A stretch of DNA of 34,596 nt. Source: a virus. A model generated the notes under the pieces. That model saw only the letters and a program-made list of their open reading frames with translations. It was not told where the DNA came from and ran no database searches. Below, one piece after another: positions 11,446 through 29,118 of this stretch (its first letter is position 1; every line of letters starts with the position of its first letter). The stretch spans positions 1 to 34,596 of IMG/VR virus record IMGVR_UViG_3300037235_000087; one strand, 5' to 3'. A program made the position numbers and the translations under genes.

Positions 11446-12900
11446 TCATGCCGCTCGACCGACAGAGGGCGCGGAGCAATCCGCGCCCTTGCTGCGTGTG
11501 GGCCCTAGAACGCGATCGCGGATCGTCGCGGCAAGCGCGGCCATCATCGGCGGCGGCACCGCGCGGCCGAGCCGCTCCCATTGCTGCGCATAGGTTCCGG
11601 TCAGCACGAAGTCAGCCGGAAAGCCGCAGATCGCGCGAAGCTCGGCAATCGAGAACTTGCGGCACTCGGTCGGATGCGCGACCGAGGCAAGGTGCGGTTT
11701 GCCGCCCTCGGCGGTAATGGTTCCGGACGGCGTATCGAGCGCGGCGCGCGTAAGCTGAAAATACCGCTCGGACTGCTCGCCCTGGCCGAGCTTGGCAAGC
11801 TCGCGGCCGACCGCATACCGCGACATATCCGCCTCGGTCTCGATCGTCATCCCACTTTGCGTGTGCGGTCGGTTGTGCGTCTGCACGGTCGGCGCCGGCT
11901 CGTCGACCGAGCGCTGCCGGTGCGCGGTGCTGATCTTGACTGACCGGCGCGCCTGGACTGTTGCGGCCGGCACGCTCGCGGACGCCATAGCGTGGCCGTT
12001 GAACCCGTTGGCGCACTCGACGGCGCCGATCCACGGCAGCGCGTCACGGACGCTGTAGCGGTATGCGAGCGGTGCCGGAAAGGCCGGCTTGGTCGCGAGA
12101 TCGAGCCGCGTCCCGACAAAAAACAACCGCTGCCGCGCTTGCGGCACGCCAAGCCATTGCGCATCGAGCAGCCGGGCTTCGACGCGATAGCCGCAATCCT
12201 TGAGCGCCGCGAGGATGTCGAGAAAGAACCCTTTCCCCACGCCCTTGACCAGACCCGAAACATTCTCGGCGACGAACACGCGGGGCTGTAGACCGCGCAG
12301 CAGCCGGACGAATTGAAAGAACAGATCATCGGTCCGCTGCTTGCTGTCCGAGTAGCGCTTGACCTGTCCCCAGTGGCGCTGACGTTTGCCGGCCATCGAA
12401 AAGCTCGCGCAGGGCGGCGAGCCGTCCAACAGATCAAGCTCGCCAGCGTGCAGGCCGGCGGCGTCGAGTATTTCCTCCGGCTCGACCTTGCGGATGTCAC
12501 GCGCATCGAGCCGGGTCTCGGGGAAGTTGGCCCGGTAGGTATCGCGGGCGGCCGGAATGAATTCGTTGGCCCAGACGACCTTGAAGCCGGCTATGCGATA
12601 GCCGAGCGACGAGCCGCCGCAACCGCTGAAGGTCGATACGGCGCGGTAGCCATTGAATGGCAGCGCGGCGATCTCGGCCATCAACGGAATGCGATACGGC
12701 AGCTTGTCGGCGCGGGCCGGACGAGGCGGCGAGCCGTTACGCTCGATCATGATCCGCGACCGCGGCGCCGCATCGATCGTCGGAAATGGCTGGTTCGTTA
12801 CGTCGATGAATTCGTGGGCGATACCAGGGAAGTGCCGCGTCTTGTCGGTAGGATATTTCGCCCACGGCACGCCGCTCGATCGCTCGGCCCATATTCTCAC
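11446..12900 (-). CDS. DNA (cytosine-5) methyltransferase
   Basis: 484 aa. Motifs in order: I VSTFSGCGGSSLGY (residues 88-101), IV DGSPPCASFSMAG with catalytic Cys164, VI AENVSG (211-216), VIII QARQRLFFVG (254-263), a variable target-recognition region (about 290-410), then IX/X RELRAICGFP-like and QQWERLGRAVPPPMM near the end. All catalytic motifs are present, so it should be active. No restriction enzyme lies beside it; an anti-restriction or regulatory role is likely. GTG at 12900 overlaps the ParB-domain stop (GTGA). About 75 residues before motif I are extra, and a later start near residue 74 is possible. Confidence 0.92.
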   Translation of the reverse strand: MRIWAERSSGVPWAKYPTDKTRHFPGIAHEFIDVTNQPFPTIDAAPRSRIMIERNGSPPRPARADKLPYRIPLMAEIAALPFNGYRAVSTFSGCGGSSLGYRIAGFKVVWANEFIPAARDTYRANFPETRLDARDIRKVEPEEILDAAGLHAGELDLLDGSPPCASFSMAGKRQRHWGQVKRYSDSKQRTDDLFFQFVRLLRGLQPRVFVAENVSGLVKGVGKGFFLDILAALKDCGYRVEARLLDAQWLGVPQARQRLFFVGTRLDLATKPAFPAPLAYRYSVRDALPWIGAVECANGFNGHAMASASVPAATVQARRSVKISTAHRQRSVDEPAPTVQTHNRPHTQSGMTIETEADMSRYAVGRELAKLGQGEQSERYFQLTRAALDTPSGTITAEGGKPHLASVAHPTECRKFSIAELRAICGFPADFVLTGTYAQQWERLGRAVPPPMMAALAATIRDRVLGPTRSKGADCSAPSVGRAA

Positions 12901-13478
12901 GCGGCATCGTCCGGTTCCTCGGTCCGCGCCGCCGAGCCACCGGAAAACCGGAACCCGCATTTTGGGCAGACATGCTCGGTCTCGATCGTCTCGTCATACG
13001 CGCCGAATTCGCTCGGTGCCTGCGGACCGTTCATCAGCTTGTCGGCCTCGCCGGTGGAAAAACCGATCAATTCGATGTTGGCACCGAGACCCTGCAGCTC
13101 GGCAAGCTCGACACCGAGCAATTGCTGATCCCAGCCGGCGAGCGTCGGCAATTGATTGTCGGCGATCCGGTATGCCTTGATCTGCGCCTCGGTCCAGCCA
13201 CGCGCGACCATCGTCGGGATTTCGGTAATGTCGAGTTGCCGCGCAGCAAGCACGCGGCCGTGGCCGGCGATCAAGGTACCCGCCTCGTCGACCAGGGCGG
13301 GCATCGTCCAGCCCCACTCGCGGATCGAGGCGGCCAGTGCCGCAACCTGGGCATCGCTGTGCGTCCGGGCGTTGCGGGCGTACGGGATTAGCCGCTCGAT
13401 CGGCCAGCGCTCGACGCGATCGGCCGGCCACTGCGGCTGCGGTGCCGGCGTTGATTTCGCCGGACGCCGCGCGCTCAC
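12897..13478 (-). CDS. ParB/Srx-domain protein with C-terminal CxxC
   Basis: 193 aa. Typical ParB N-terminal/sulfiredoxin-fold signs: RLIPYARNARTHSDAQV (30-45), ASIREWGWTMPALVD, GTLIAGHGRVLAARQL (67-82), and the YRIADNQL-x-AGWD stretch (103-117). The last 30 residues carry HVCPKCGFRF (C171, C174), only one CxxC pair. It lacks the ParB HTH domain for partition. Proteins of this form commonly adjoin or are fused to phage DNA methyltransferases, and it directly precedes and overlaps the C5 methyltransferase. ATG overlaps the upstream stop. Partition by itself is unlikely, although a parS-like site lies 0.6 kb away. Confidence 0.88.
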   Translation of the reverse strand: MSARRPAKSTPAPQPQWPADRVERWPIERLIPYARNARTHSDAQVAALAASIREWGWTMPALVDEAGTLIAGHGRVLAARQLDITEIPTMVARGWTEAQIKAYRIADNQLPTLAGWDQQLLGVELAELQGLGANIELIGFSTGEADKLMNGPQAPSEFGAYDETIETEHVCPKCGFRFSGGSAARTEEPDDAA

Positions 13479-14140: not shown

Positions 14141-14782
14141 TCAGGTCGCCGAGCGACGGCGGACGAAACCAAGCCCGGCAAGGCCGAGACCGAGCAGCGC
14201 CAAGCTGGCGGGCTCGGGAACGGGCGAGGCGGAAAAATTGCCGGCGATCGAGGACGAGAACGATGCCAGCGTCGTACCGTCAATACCGACGCCCGGCGCA
14301 ACGTTGATGAAGCTCAGCGCCAGGCCATCGGGTGCGCCGAGCAGGTCAGCCGCAATCACGCTCGAATTGAAGGTGACCGACTCGGGTGGGTTGGCGGCAG
14401 TAAGCGACAGCGAGTCGCCGATGCCGAACACCGCATCGGTAAACGATCCGCTGAGGAAGTTGGTCGCGCCCTCGTGGATCGAAAACGTGCCGTCAAACGA
14501 TTGCTCGACGTGGCCAGCGGCGATCGTGGCAACGCCGACGCTAGTGGCAGAGAGATCGAGCAGCGCGGGCGTCGGGACCGCCACCGCCGCGTCAATCTGG
14601 GTGATGTCAATTCCGACACCGGTGCCGGTGATCGTGGTCGAGGTTCCGGCGCCGTTGGCGACGGCGTGGATCGTATCGGCGGTGCCGGCCTGTCCCATCG
14701 TCAGGATGGTTGTCGCATTGACCGTTGCCGGTAGGGCAATGAGCACGGCAGTCGCGAGTAGCGTCATTTTTAGACGGGACAT
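14141..14782 (-). CDS. PEP-CTERM sorted secreted protein
   Basis: 213 aa. Residues 1-23 are a signal peptide (MSRLKMTLLATAVLIALPAT, cleavage after VNA). The middle is a Ser/Thr/Gly/Ala-rich beta-type domain. The C-terminus has the full sorting signal: PVPEPASLALLG, a hydrophobic helix LGLAGLGF and a basic tail RRR. In bacteria such proteins are cleaved by exosortase and placed in the outer surface or matrix. ATG 14782 has GGAG 10 nt upstream. It stands alone between two leftward operons with its own spacers, as a lysogenic-conversion (moron) gene would. A TTGCC-N5-GGCAA site lies 43-57 nt inside the gene. Confidence 0.9.
   Translation of the reverse strand: MSRLKMTLLATAVLIALPATVNATTILTMGQAGTADTIHAVANGAGTSTTITGTGVGIDITQIDAAVAVPTPALLDLSATSVGVATIAAGHVEQSFDGTFSIHEGATNFLSGSFTDAVFGIGDSLSLTAANPPESVTFNSSVIAADLLGAPDGLALSFINVAPGVGIDGTTLASFSSSIAGNFSASPVPEPASLALLGLGLAGLGFVRRRSAT
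14725..14739. promoter_or_regulatory. Dispersed operator TTGCC-GGTAG-GGCAA in 5' end of PEP-CTERM gene
   Basis: Exact half-sites with the same 5-nt spacing as the intergenic copies. It falls within the signal-peptide codons, so it may be a regulatory site or a chance match. Confidence 0.45.
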
Positions 14783-22768: not shown

Positions 22769-22802
22769 TGACGACGACTCGCGTTAACCTAGGGAGGATA
22801 TG

Positions 22803-23549
22803 ATGGCACGAGCACCTAGAAAGACTGTGGCGGCTGAGGCAGAAGTAAAGTTACAGATGCCGAATATAAAGCGCTTCAACATCTGGCTGGTCGGCGACAC
22901 GCCGTTGATCTGTCATGCGTGGTCGGAAAAGGCCAGGCGCGATATGCTGGACAAACAGGTTAAGCAAATCAAAGCCGAGGGACGCGAGCAACGCAGCCCA
23001 GAGGATGACTTTCTAAATTCGCTTTATGATATGGGGAACGAGACTTACGGCTTTCCGATCACAGCGATAAAGAAGGCCATGCGTGAAAGTGCGCACTTCA
23101 ATCGGGGGATCGCCAAGGTCGACGTGTTCCCGAGCATCTGGCTAGACCACGACATCGTCCGCGTTCGGCCAGCTCTTGCTGATGCGATCTGTGATATGCC
23201 GCTCATTCGCATTGTCGCCGAAAGGCCAGAGATGCGGGAGGATATGGGCCGGATCGGCAGCGGCTTGGCAAAAAAGGCCAACTTGATCTATCGCGGCCAG
23301 TTTTTCCCGTGGGCATTGAACATCACCGGCCGGGTGAATATCAGCCGCGTACCCGAGGAAGCGATGGTCAATCTCCTGTCATGGTCTGGCATGGAGATCG
23401 GAATCGGTGAGTGGCGGACCGAGAAAAGCGGCGTTATGGGTGCGTTCCATCCGGCGAGCGAAGAGGAGGCGCAGTCGTGGGCGCGCTTCCGTTCCGGCAA
23501 TGGACCGATCCCACAAGTCAGGACACTCTATCAGGAGGCGGCAGACTAA
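22803..23549 (+). CDS. Conserved phage early protein, unknown (GIGEWR motif)
   Basis: 248 aa. Recognisable conserved stretches: NIWLVGDTPLICHAWSEKARRDMLDKQ (about residues 25-51), YGFPITAIKKAMRESAHF, PLIRI, LIYRGQFFPWALNITGRVNI and the near-terminal GMEIGIGEWRTEKSGVMGAF. Proteins with this layout are common beside annealing-protein genes, without an assigned activity. The Gly-rich end resembles RAMP-type loops, which is only an impression. AGGGAGG 5 nt before ATG 22803 decides between two adjacent ATGs. Its TAA overlaps the next ATG. Confidence 0.78.
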   Translation: MARAPRKTVAAEAEVKLQMPNIKRFNIWLVGDTPLICHAWSEKARRDMLDKQVKQIKAEGREQRSPEDDFLNSLYDMGNETYGFPITAIKKAMRESAHFNRGIAKVDVFPSIWLDHDIVRVRPALADAICDMPLIRIVAERPEMREDMGRIGSGLAKKANLIYRGQFFPWALNITGRVNISRVPEEAMVNLLSWSGMEIGIGEWRTEKSGVMGAFHPASEEEAQSWARFRSGNGPIPQVRTLYQEAAD

Positions 23550-24058
23550 TGGCAAATTATATCTTTCGCGACGTGGTGCCGTTGCGAGGCAAGAAACACC
23601 TAGACCCGCAGAAGGTCGGCGAGATTATCGCAGCGCTACCGGCCGAAGATCGCCCCGAGGCTTTATGGCGGGCTGCCAAGGAGCGCGGTCATTATCTGCA
23701 TAGTTGTTACGAATGGAATACGCAGCGTGCTGCCGAGGCGCATTGGCGCACTACGTCACTCGGGATTATTCGTTCCATTTACGTGGTGAGTGACAGTGAT
23801 CCCGACGAGGAAACGCCGGCATTCATTTCGATCACAGCTGATGCCGGGCGGCGCTTCTATGAGCCGACGGAGATTGTCGGCAGTCTGTCGTTGCAGGTTG
23901 CGTTGATGAAAGCCGCGCGGCGCGATCTTGACGCGTTTCGGAAGCGATACCGTGTGCTGGGCGAGATTTGCGGCCTCGTAGCAGCGGCGCAAAGCAAGCT
24001 CGATGAGGCGATTAAACGATCGACAGAGACAGGCCCATCAGCGGCCGACGCTGCGTGA
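23549..24058 (+). CDS. Unknown early protein, 169 aa, last of the operon
   Basis: Start ATG 23549 in TAATG overlap, preceded by AGGAGGC. Features: ERGHYLHSCYEWNTQRAAEAHWR and IIRSIYVVSDSDPDEE, ITADAGRRFYEPTEIV, then a helical C-terminal half (LQVALMKAARRDLDAFRKRYRVL) ending in a short acidic tail. The H-x-x-YEW-N block recurs in phage proteins of unknown function. Its stop lies 4 nt before the GGCNN array, so the early operon ends here, with the array possibly acting as its 3' region. Confidence 0.75.
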   Translation: MANYIFRDVVPLRGKKHLDPQKVGEIIAALPAEDRPEALWRAAKERGHYLHSCYEWNTQRAAEAHWRTTSLGIIRSIYVVSDSDPDEETPAFISITADAGRRFYEPTEIVGSLSLQVALMKAARRDLDAFRKRYRVLGEICGLVAAAQSKLDEAIKRSTETGPSAADAA

Positions 24059-24061
24059 ATT

Positions 24062-24870
24062 GGCATGGCAAGGCTGGCGTGGCAAGGCTGGGCAAGGCAC
24101 GTCTGGGCAAGGCGTGTCACGTTGCGGCAAGGCAAGGCTGGCGAGGCCGCGCAGGGCAGGGCTCGGTTAGGCTCGGTTCGGCACAGCACGGCGCGGCATG
24201 GCGCGGCTGGCGAGGCGGGGCAGGGCAGGGCATGGCGCGGCAAGGCTGGGCGAGGCTGGCGGGGTACGGCACGGCGCGGCACGGCCAGGTCTGGCAAGGC
24301 GCGGCTCGGCTGGCGAGGCGGGGCTGGGCTTGGCCGGTCCCGGAGTGGCGCGGCATGGCCGGGCAAGGCGAGGCTGGCATGGCACGGCGTGGCCGGGCCA
24401 GGCGTGGCTTAGCTAGGTCGGGCATGGCCGGCGGGGCTGGCAAGTCGCGGCTCGTCAAGTCGCGGCTAGGCTCGGCACGGCATGGCAAGGCAAGGCTGGC
24501 GCGGCCCGGCAGGGCTAGGCGTGGCGAGGCAGGGCCAGGCGTAGCTCGGCATGGCTGGCACGGTCCGGCAGGGCAGCGCAGGTTCCGGCCCGGCGCGTCT
24601 GGGCATGGCGTGGTTCGTTTCGGCAAGGCAAGGCTGGCCACGCTGGGTGGGGTTCGGCTCGGCAGGGCTTGGCGGGGCATGGCATGGCTGGCGGGGCTGG
24701 GCGGTGCCGGGCAGTGCGCGGCGCGGCTCGGAGTGGCCGGGCTAGGCTCGGCATGGCGAGGCTGGCGCGGCTTGGCGTGGCTTGGCTTGGCAGGGCACTG
24801 CACGGCCGGGCCGGGCGGGGCCAGGCGGGGCAAGGCCGGCGCGGCGCGGCAGGGCAAGGCGCGGCTAGTC
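24062..24870. repeat. Degenerate pentanucleotide array (GGCNN)n, about 160 units
   Basis: Nearly every fifth base on the plus strand starts GGC; the two following positions vary (AA, TG, GC, AC, AT, CA and others). Interruptions are occasional 4-nt units GGCY, which shift the phase, and single changes such as GTC, GGT, GGA. The tract starts 4 nt after a stop codon and ends about 70 nt before the excisionase-like gene. Both strands stay open for hundreds of codons (for example 24055-24939 plus, 24117-24872 minus) because the 5-nt period lacks stops, so I do not call it protein coding. Strand bias is extreme, G on plus and C on minus. Function unknown. Confidence 0.9.
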
Positions 24871-24941
24871 ATGGTGTGCAGGTCTGGGCGGGGCGCGGCC
24901 GGCTTGGCCGCTGCCCTGGTACTCGCGGTGCACCGCTAGCT

Positions 24942-25289
24942 ATGGCCCGCGTTCCCCTTGGCGAGCTTCCGTCATGGCCGCGCCATCTCTCCCGCGTCGA
25001 AGCCGCGCGGTATCTGGGCGTTAGCGATGATGTCTTCGACCAAGAGGTCCGCGCCGGTCTCTGGCCGAAGCCGCTTCGCCGGGGCGCGCGCGGGGGGCGT
25101 GGAACGTGGGACCGAATTGCGCTAGATAGAGCCGCTGATCGCGCTTCCGGACTAGAGGGAGTGTCGGGACCGGCGGCAACCGGGTCCGATTATTCCGTGG
25201 AGGCAGCGACAGCGGAAGCAATGGAGATGTTACGTCATGTCACGTCCAATCGGAACCGGACTCAAGGTAGTCCGCGCAAAGCTCGCTGA
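24942..25289 (+). CDS. Excisionase-like HTH protein
   Basis: 115 aa. Residues 15-66 (HLSRVEAARYLGVSDDVFDQEVRAGLWPKPLRRG then TWDRIALDRAADRAS) are the MerR/AlpA-type winged helix that precedes integrase genes in many alphaproteobacterial phages. It is the probable recombination directionality factor. The C-terminal third is linker-like. Its 3' end overlaps the integrase start by 53 nt. ATG 24942 follows the GGCNN array; earlier in-frame starts lie inside the array and are rejected. Confidence 0.75.
   Translation: MARVPLGELPSWPRHLSRVEAARYLGVSDDVFDQEVRAGLWPKPLRRGARGGRGTWDRIALDRAADRASGLEGVSGPAATGSDYSVEAATAEAMEMLRHVTSNRNRTQGSPRKAR
25168..25187. repeat. GACCGGCGGCAACCGG hairpin, copy 1
   Basis: Sixteen-base core identical to 26335-26350, with flanks allowing a stem of GGACCGG/CCGGgTCC. 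Lies in the excisionase-like gene before the integrase start. Confidence 0.5.
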
Positions 25290-27874: not shown

Positions 27875-28127
27875 ATGGCATCCTCGCAAGGGCCAGAAGA
27901 TCGAGCGGCTATACGCTTGGGTCGCTGAGGAAGCGGACGGCGGCGAGGGACTGTGCTCGATGCCGCTCGGCGACTTGACGATGCCGATGATCGGCGCCGA
28001 CCGCGAGCGTATCGAGAGTATGCGCGAATATGCCCAGCGCATCGCTAGCATACTCGGCATACCTGTCCGGCTGATCGAATTTTCGACCCGCACGGTGCTG
28101 GAGGACAGCCCCGATGCTCGTCGATGA
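27864..28127 (+). CDS. Unknown early protein, 87 aa
   Basis: Overlaps the HTH gene by 11 nt and the next gene by 14 nt. Sequence WHPRKGQKIERLYAWVAEEADGGEGLC, MPMIGADRERIESMREYAQRIASILGIPVRLIEFS: the ending is an alpha/beta pattern of small phage proteins. The DRERIESMREYAQRIA helix is strongly charged. No family recognised. Confidence 0.72.
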   Translation: MANEWHPRKGQKIERLYAWVAEEADGGEGLCSMPLGDLTMPMIGADRERIESMREYAQRIASILGIPVRLIEFSTRTVLEDSPDARR

Positions 28128-29118
28128 CCTGATAGCGAATGCCGGAACGGCGAACGATCGATCGTTCGGCGGCGCGTTCACCGAGCTAGCGAAGTCGCTG
28201 CGGATCGCGCAACGGTTCGATCTGTCGCCGGACGTTATGCGGTCCGCGTTTACGGTCGCGCATTCGCCGATCGGCGGGCAGCTTCGCGCCCTGCCGCTAA
28301 CCAAGCTGCCCTTTCGGCTTTGTTGGTTCGAGTGGCCGGGGGGCTTCGCTGGCGATCCGTCGACGCGGACCGATTGCCACGCTCCGGTGCCCAAGCGGCT
28401 CGGCTGTCTGATCGAGACCGATGCCAGCCTGCAACGCGGCGCGATGATCTATGCGTGGCTACATGCGGAGGACAGTCGTGGCGAGCAGGGTGCGAATATT
28501 TGTCCCCTCGCCGTGACGTTCGATTGGCGGTCCGAGCCGGCGCCGTTGCCGGACCTAACCCATGCCGATCGATGGGGCGTGGGCATGCCCGATCAATGGT
28601 GGCGCGAGCAGGCGGAATTGTTTCCGCGCTTGCGTGGCGCGGCGCCCGGCGACGTCATGGACGATCACCGACGCTTCGGAATGGTTATCAATCCGATGAT
28701 GAAGCGGTTCATGGACTTCGCCGAGGCGAACAGCGGGGCCGGTTATACCGCGCTACTCAATGCGGCGACGCTGGATATCAAAGGCGAGCCGGTGCTCCTG
28801 CGGGCGGCGCTTATGCTGATGAATAGCCGCAATCTCGCGCGGCATGAAAACCGCCCTGCTCCGCCACGTCTGAACGCTGCTAGAGCCCGGCGCGGCAAGC
28901 CGCCGCTATTGGACTATACCCACGTGCATATCCGGTTGACGCGCGCTCTAGGCCGGCGCGCGGGCATGGCCGCTGATCCGCGCGCGCCGAGCCGGCTGCA
29001 TCTCGTCCGGGGGCACTTCAAAATTAGGGCCTCGGGCGTGTACTGGTGGGCGCCGCATGCCAGGGGTCACGCGACGCAAGGCGAGGTCCGCCGCCAGCAG
29101 CATACGGTGGCGCTATGA
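28114..29118 (+). CDS. Conserved phage protein with C-terminal RGH-WW-PH-RG motif, unknown
   Basis: 334 aa. Middle part (LPFRLCWFEWPGG, RLGCLIETDASLQRGAMIYAW) and C-terminal part (LNAARARRGKPPLLDYTHVHI then LHLVRGHFKIRASGVYWWAPHARGHA) are known as a conserved unit in many phage proteins. The RGHFK...WW-x-PH-x-RG pattern suggests a shared binding or catalytic centre of His and Arg, but no function is established. ATG 28114 overlaps the preceding gene, and its TGA overlaps the next ATG. Confidence 0.8.
   Translation: MLVDDLIANAGTANDRSFGGAFTELAKSLRIAQRFDLSPDVMRSAFTVAHSPIGGQLRALPLTKLPFRLCWFEWPGGFAGDPSTRTDCHAPVPKRLGCLIETDASLQRGAMIYAWLHAEDSRGEQGANICPLAVTFDWRSEPAPLPDLTHADRWGVGMPDQWWREQAELFPRLRGAAPGDVMDDHRRFGMVINPMMKRFMDFAEANSGAGYTALLNAATLDIKGEPVLLRAALMLMNSRNLARHENRPAPPRLNAARARRGKPPLLDYTHVHIRLTRALGRRAGMAADPRAPSRLHLVRGHFKIRASGVYWWAPHARGHATQGEVRRQQHTVAL

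What the first reader, a model, noticed from the sequence alone, without database searches (positions are those of the whole stretch)
24062..24870. Long degenerate pentanucleotide array (GGCNN)n between the early operon and xis/int
Seen: about 160 units, GGC fixed every 5 nt on one strand with two free positions, phase slips by 4-nt units GGCY, extreme G/C strand bias, sharp borders at a stop codon and before the excisionase-like gene. It is open in several frames on both strands, so protein coding is not needed to explain it. Constraint on 3 of 5 positions without conserving the other 2 suggests selection on spacing (half a helical turn), on a strand-specific structure (G-rich R-loop or quadruplex), on a protein reading GGC every 5 bp, or on Chi-like recombination beside ERF. 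I know of no described element of this form.
Basis: partly seen in the sequence, partly recalled or inferred. Interest (0 to 1): 0.88.

Follow-up and report, generated by a model that had tools for sequence, protein, structure and literature searches.

The report
Phage VIPR guide-RNA array with punctuation
The strange repeat is a phage's bank of about a dozen short guide RNAs, sitting beside the gene of a small CRISPR-related protein that uses such guides to bind and silence DNA, probably of rival mobile elements; this kind of system (VIPR) was first described in a 2026 preprint.

Summary
The repeat is real. In 151 pentamers, positions 1-3 (GGC) carry 1.5-1.6 bits each and positions 4-5 under 0.1. 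It is not a neutral repeat, a gene or a DNA-only element. Two genes upstream are window 22800-23549 (family A) and 23549-24058 (family B). Family A is homologous to the Vipr protein of phage SUSP1 (PDB 36pp, profile E=1e-35) and has a Cas7-like RAMP fold. In 45 array loci found by the DNA pattern alone, 40 have a Vipr gene within 1.5 kb, all on the array's strand. So this is a VIPR locus (PMC13142463): Vipr plus RNAs of alternating GGY/NN, in which the NN pairs specify a DNA target with a 1-nt skip. In mycobacteriophages such guides are gained and lost whole, by lengths not divisible by 3. Punctuated arrays go with family B (p=3e-8) and with one supported Vipr clade that excludes SUSP1. Two decoded guides match conserved codons of a VapE-type gene and a Toprim-like gene; this is suggestive only. 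Verdict: a new member of a known kind.

The parts
22800..23549 (+). vipr gene (family A, 249 aa; start may be 22803), RAMP/Cas7-like Vipr protein
   Evidence: phrog_4652; family profile hits PDB 36pp SUSP1 Vipr, E=1.1e-35; hhalign to SUSP1 Vipr 99.7%; AlphaFold model pLDDT 86, top Foldseek hits listed are Cas7-type RAMPs of type III and VII CRISPR complexes
23549..24058 (+). vap-like accessory gene (family B, 169 aa), start overlaps the vipr stop; candidate winged-helix DNA-binding protein
   Evidence: phrog_15946; next to Vipr and array in 21 of 45 array loci, all on the same strand; model pLDDT 90, only weak winged-helix matches; not homologous to SUSP1 vap1 by hhalign
24062..24872 (+). VIPR array (vrRNA-coding): GGYNN pentamers in 12 guides of 9-15 units plus a terminal 7-unit segment, separated by 4-nt units
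24072..24075 (+). first 4-nt separator GGCT (others at 24136, 24205, 24254, 24308, 24372, 24435, 24494, 24553, 24632, 24686, 24760; GGCC at 24426 and 24834)
24376..24425 (+). guide 6, NN = AT AC GT CG CA GT TT TA CG AT; 9/10 units match MTVRQVFYR codons in four viral contigs
24498..24552 (+). guide 8, NN = GC CC AG TA GT GA AG CA GT TC AT; 10/11 units match antisense to (L/I)DTWLSTYLG codons of VapE-type genes
24863..24942 (+). GC-rich imperfect hairpin at the 3' end of the array; candidate tail or terminator, unproven
   Evidence: -45.6 kcal/mol, z=-1.8 against shuffles

Best explanation
The array is the guide part of a VIPR system. Steps inferred from the preprint and the homology: the array is transcribed from the + strand with or after vipr and the accessory gene; Vipr subunits, small Cas7-like RAMPs, line up on the RNA, one per GGY-NN pentamer, holding GGY and presenting NN; the complex binds double-stranded DNA in which successive NN pairs match with one skipped base between them, and blocks transcription of a competing phage, prophage or satellite. 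Shown here: the gene pair, the array form, the homology and fold of Vipr, the strand and linkage, and segmentation by 4-nt units into guides of 9-15 pentamers that turn over as whole units in relatives. My inference for this subtype: the 4-nt unit breaks the 5-nt register of the Vipr filament and so marks guide ends, letting one continuous RNA carry about 12 guides without a tail between them.
For: Profile of family A against PDB: SUSP1 Vipr, E=1.1e-35; hhalign 99.7%; Cas7/RAMP fold. Preprint definition: Vipr + vap + RNAs of 9-16 YNNGG repeats, phage-encoded, 1-nt skip. Array positions 1-3 conserved, 4-5 free. Unbiased linkage: 40 of 45 array loci have Vipr within 1.5 kb, 40/40 same strand; 9 unrelated contigs have none. 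Segments of 9-15 pentamers fit the known vrRNA length; random placement of cuts gave this in 0 of 100000 trials. Each locus keeps its own separator word (158 of 179). Whole-guide gain and loss in mycobacteriophages. Punctuation and family B co-occur (22/6 against 1/23, p=2.8e-8), and a Vipr clade of 31 (support 100/97) holds them.
Against: No RNA data for this phage, so expression, processing and binding are not shown. The window's Vipr alone gives no significant PDB hit by phmmer; the link runs through the family profile. SUSP1 vrRNAs have mostly GGT, not GGC, and a tail after each repeat tract; here there is no tail between guides. One separator pair (24426-24438) is irregular. No perfect target was found: the genome scan for full guide 8 gave nothing and for full guide 6 one out-of-frame chance hit. 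Five other guides gave 0 or 1 hit in viral contigs. The preprint is not peer reviewed.
Confidence: 0.95

Rival explanations
1. A degenerate microsatellite: neutral expansion of a pentamer followed by mutation.
For: Tandem form, some higher-order repeats.
Against: Mutation should hit all five positions, but three keep about 1.5 bits and two keep none. It recurs in unrelated phages beside one protein family on one strand, and 4-nt units are regularly spaced with a locus-specific word.
Confidence: 0.02
2. A protein-coding repeat (G-x-A-[RWG]-x pentapeptides).
For: A 294-aa ORF crosses the array; some phages have genes annotated inside arrays.
Against: Open frames follow from the period. Close mycobacteriophages differ by whole blocks of 59 and 113 bp, not multiples of 3. 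Annotated genes inside the arrays are inconsistent between near-identical phages.
Confidence: 0.02
3. A DNA-level element: sites for a protein reading GGC every 5 bp, or a recombination hot spot beside ERF.
For: ERF-type gene in the same arm.
Against: ERF was detected in only 4 array loci by tblastn, whereas Vipr, a homologue of RNA-binding RAMPs, is next to nearly all. Strand is always that of the genes. The free bases are hypervariable, organised in guide-length segments, and turn over as blocks.
Confidence: 0.02
4. The array is a VIPR relic: vipr is present but the guides are dead or decoys.
For: About 15% of triplets depart from GGY; no perfect target found.
Against: Most triplets are intact, the separator word is constant, vipr and the accessory gene are intact, and two guides match conserved codons in frame.
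Confidence: 0.1

Closest known systems
VIPR type II, phage SUSP1 (vipr 28474-29061 and vap1 28031-28471 of KT454805; PMC13142463; PDB 36pp)
   Same: Phage-encoded; homologous Vipr; two-gene locus with arrays in the neighbouring intergenic stretch; 5-nt units GGY/NN; guide length 9-16 units.
   Different: SUSP1 has GGT-rich single vrRNAs each followed by a structured tail. The window has GGC-rich units, about 12 guides in one run split by 4-nt GGCT units, an unrelated accessory protein, and a Vipr in another part of the tree.
VIPR 'staggered arrays with overlapping vrRNAs' (preprint fig. S18, not readable here)
   Same: Multi-guide arrays without obvious spacing; may be the same thing as the punctuated arrays.
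   Different: Cannot be compared: only one phrase of the main text was available.
Class 1 CRISPR-Cas (Cas7 of types III and VII)
   Same: Cas7-like RAMP fold; multi-guide array; modular gain and loss of guides.
   Different: No direct repeats with contiguous spacers, no other cas gene seen; guide information is in 2 of every 5 bases; phage-borne minimal locus.
Cluster F mycobacteriophages (Donkeykong, Brocalys, Quico and others) and Gordonia phages Pipp and UmaThurman
   Same: Same clade of Vipr (tree includes Donkeykong, Brocalys, Quico and Pipp), family B in those read, punctuated arrays with separator GGCA.
   Different: Shorter arrays (195-348 bp); array before vipr or between the two genes rather than after both.

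Membership tests
VIPR system | Vipr protein (ancestral RAMP with RRM core and G-loop) | tested here: met
   Profile hit to PDB 36pp Vipr E=1.1e-35, hhalign 99.7%, Foldseek to Cas7-type RAMPs; G-rich motif near the C-terminus conserved
VIPR system | vrRNA-coding DNA of alternating GGY and NN | tested here: met
   129 of 151 units GGY, NN nearly free
VIPR system | 9-16 repeats per vrRNA | tested here: met
   12 segments of 9-15 units between 4-nt units; one terminal segment of 7. That segments equal vrRNAs is inferred
VIPR system | vap accessory gene next to vipr | tested here: met
   Family B overlaps the vipr stop and co-occurs in relatives; it is not SUSP1 vap1, and which vap number it is cannot be told
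VIPR system | Carried by a phage or prophage | tested here: met
   Window is an IMG/VR virus record with integrase and ERF-type protein
VIPR system | Invariable 3' tail after the repeat tract | tested here: inconclusive
   No tail between guides; one GC-rich hairpin after the last segment, z=-1.8; no match in Rfam
VIPR system | Targets matched with a 1-nt skip, skip at codon wobble | tested here: inconclusive
   Guides 6 and 8 match two gene families in frame, but the counts alone are near chance and no perfect target was found
VIPR system | RNA expressed, bound by Vipr and silencing DNA | not testable with these tools
   Needs RNA sequencing and reporter assays
VIPR type II (SUSP1-like) | vap1 homologue and SUSP1-side Vipr clade | tested here: not met
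   No vap1 homology; window lies in the other well-supported clade
CRISPR-Cas | Direct repeats with unique contiguous spacers and cas operon | tested here: not met
   Period-5 array only; only vipr and family B beside it

The most novel reading that the evidence does not exclude
A VIPR subtype in which one continuous transcript carries many guides delimited only by a 4-nt unit that breaks the 5-nt register, so that Vipr itself measures guide length, and in which guides are exchanged between related phages as whole units, a CRISPR-like updatable array without CRISPR. The punctuation rule, its tie to the phrog_15946 accessory protein, and guide turnover in sequenced mycobacteriophages would be the new parts.
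Probability: 0.4. Interest if true: 0.75.

Novelty: new member of a known kind. Interest (0 to 1): 0.6.

Why it matters
The finding, read from raw sequence, leads by a DNA pattern alone to a system that was first described in 2026 by protein structure search. It gives a simple way to find such arrays, shows that phrog_4652 (unknown function) is Vipr and phrog_15946 its partner in one clade, and supplies a code for splitting long arrays into guides. Cluster F mycobacteriophages, widely held and growing on M. smegmatis, carry natural punctuated arrays that differ by whole guides, so guide turnover and the role of the 4-nt separator can be tested directly.

Tried and rejected
Rfam search of window and 13 array loci: no match. 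Array against plasmids: no match. All-against-all search of 362 guides in 1.25 Mb of held DNA with skips of 0-2: no signal for any skip beyond the fetched targets; the script stopped at skip 3. Self-targeting in the window: none above background. Full-length guides 8 and 6 in 257 Gb of genomes: 0 hits and one out-of-frame hit in a carbamoyltransferase-like frame. Guides 2, 3, 9, 11, 12 in viral contigs: 1, 0, 0, 0, 0 hits; the one is 9 of 13 units and looks like chance. Guides 6 and 8 do not hit the same contigs. Structure search of family B: no significant fold match. Host of the window could not be named.

Full report
Observation. The array at 24062-24870 is as described. Parsing gives 151 pentamers; the three fixed positions carry 1.58, 1.59 and 1.46 bits and the two free ones 0.09 and 0.02. 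Lag-5 autocorrelation is 0.61. Five-unit matches are 66 against 0.06 expected, all on one strand. The fixed triplet is GGY rather than strictly GGC (120 GGC, 9 GGT).

Relatives. About 110 of them hold arrays of 60-1580 bp. BLAST of the array found 30 annotated phage records, all Mycobacterium or Gordonia phages. Their genes beside the array are homologous to the two genes upstream of the window array, and the same two families lie beside arrays in dozens of IMG/VR loci.

Linkage. Loci were chosen by the DNA pattern only (plus a few phage records chosen by array BLAST). Of 45 with a strong array and 1.5 kb on both sides, 40 have a family A gene within 1.5 kb, all 40 on the strand that bears GGC; family B is found in 21. 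Nine contigs fetched for other reasons have neither. Family A corresponds to phrog_4652 in 43 of 43 members and family B to phrog_15946 in 23 of 23.

Identity. The family A profile hits PDB 36pp, SUSP1 Vipr, at E=1.1e-35, with nothing else significant. hhalign against the SUSP1 gene gives 99.7%. The AlphaFold model of the window protein (pLDDT 86) matches Cas7-type RAMPs of type VII and type III CRISPR complexes. PMC13142463 describes VIPR: a phage-borne RAMP with RNAs of 9-16 YNNGG repeats, read as a noncontiguous guide with one skipped base, that represses competing phages. The window locus fits each feature that could be tested, except that a tail is not seen between guides.

Punctuation. 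In the window, 4-nt units (12 GGCT, 2 GGCC) split the array into 12 segments of 12, 13, 9, 10, 12, 10, 11, 11, 15, 10, 14 and 14 pentamers and a last one of 7. Random cuts gave all segments within 9-15 in 0 of 100000 trials (this leaves out the one irregular pair at 24426-24438). Other loci behave alike with their own word: GGCA in most, GGCG in L008 and L056, CGCA in L031 and L119; the commonest word makes up 158 of 179 separators. Arrays without 4-nt units occur too, in loci without family B. Punctuation and family B go together (22 and 6 against 1 and 23, p=2.8e-8), and the Vipr tree puts the window in a clade of 31 (100/97) that holds nearly all punctuated loci, with SUSP1 outside it. Related loci are not independent, so that p value is optimistic.

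Turnover. In 12 cluster F mycobacteriophages the array has the same last segment and similar first segments, while inner guides come and go whole: ByChance lacks one guide plus separator (59 bp) that Saal, DRBy19 and others have, and Donkeykong has two more (113 bp) than Brocalys. Neither is a multiple of 3, which speaks against a protein.

Targets. With the 1-nt skip, guide 6 (nine of ten units) matches four viral contigs, all in the codons of MTVRQVFYR in homologous Toprim-like proteins, skip at the wobble base. Guide 8 matches three contigs (two of them 10 of 11 units, one base off), all antisense to (L/I)DTWLSTYLG; L138 is a VapE-like domain protein (PF05272, E=9e-79), a kind common in phage satellites by general knowledge. 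Five further guides gave one chance-like hit in all. Hits within a family are not independent, the counts are near what chance allows, and no perfect target was found, so I treat these as candidates.

Mechanism. Homology and anatomy support an RNA-guided DNA-binding complex for silencing rivals. That Vipr takes one pentamer per subunit, and that the 4-nt unit ends a guide by breaking the register, is my inference. Family B may be a DNA-binding helper, as stated for some vap proteins in the preprint; the fold evidence here is weak.

Novelty. The system is known since April 2026. The window is a new member, outside type II by two tests. Whether the punctuated clade is one of the seven published types is open, because the preprint's supplement was not available to me.

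Noticed in passing
L001, L005, L026, L032, L054: Strong GGCNN arrays with no detectable Vipr gene within 1.5 kb: possible orphan guide arrays, or Viprs too divergent for the profile.
   Followed up: partly
L007 6310-7022 and L034 7606-9165: Arrays with about 140 to 170 pentamers without a 4-nt unit; how these are cut into guides is unclear.
   Followed up: no
L063 1958-3539: Very long punctuated array (287 pentamers) in which a second element, ACGGGAGCAGCAGCATCCGGCGYAAAGGGATGGAC, recurs between groups of guides; no Rfam match.
   Followed up: no
L131 gp48, L153 gp52, L156 gp47, L133 gp43, L161 gp40: Genes annotated inside or across VIPR arrays in Mycobacterium and Gordonia phages are probably spurious or wrongly started.
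   Followed up: partly
window 24863-24942: Large imperfect GC-rich hairpin between the array end and the excisionase-like gene; could be a vrRNA tail, a terminator or an attachment-site feature.
   Followed up: partly
window 14141-14782 (-): ORF ending in VPEPASLALLGLGLAGLGFVRRRS, which looks like a PEP-CTERM sorting signal; unusual in a phage record and may be host DNA or a moron gene.
   Followed up: no
window 11446-12960 (-): ORF resembling a C5 cytosine DNA methyltransferase (motif GSPPCASFS).
   Followed up: no
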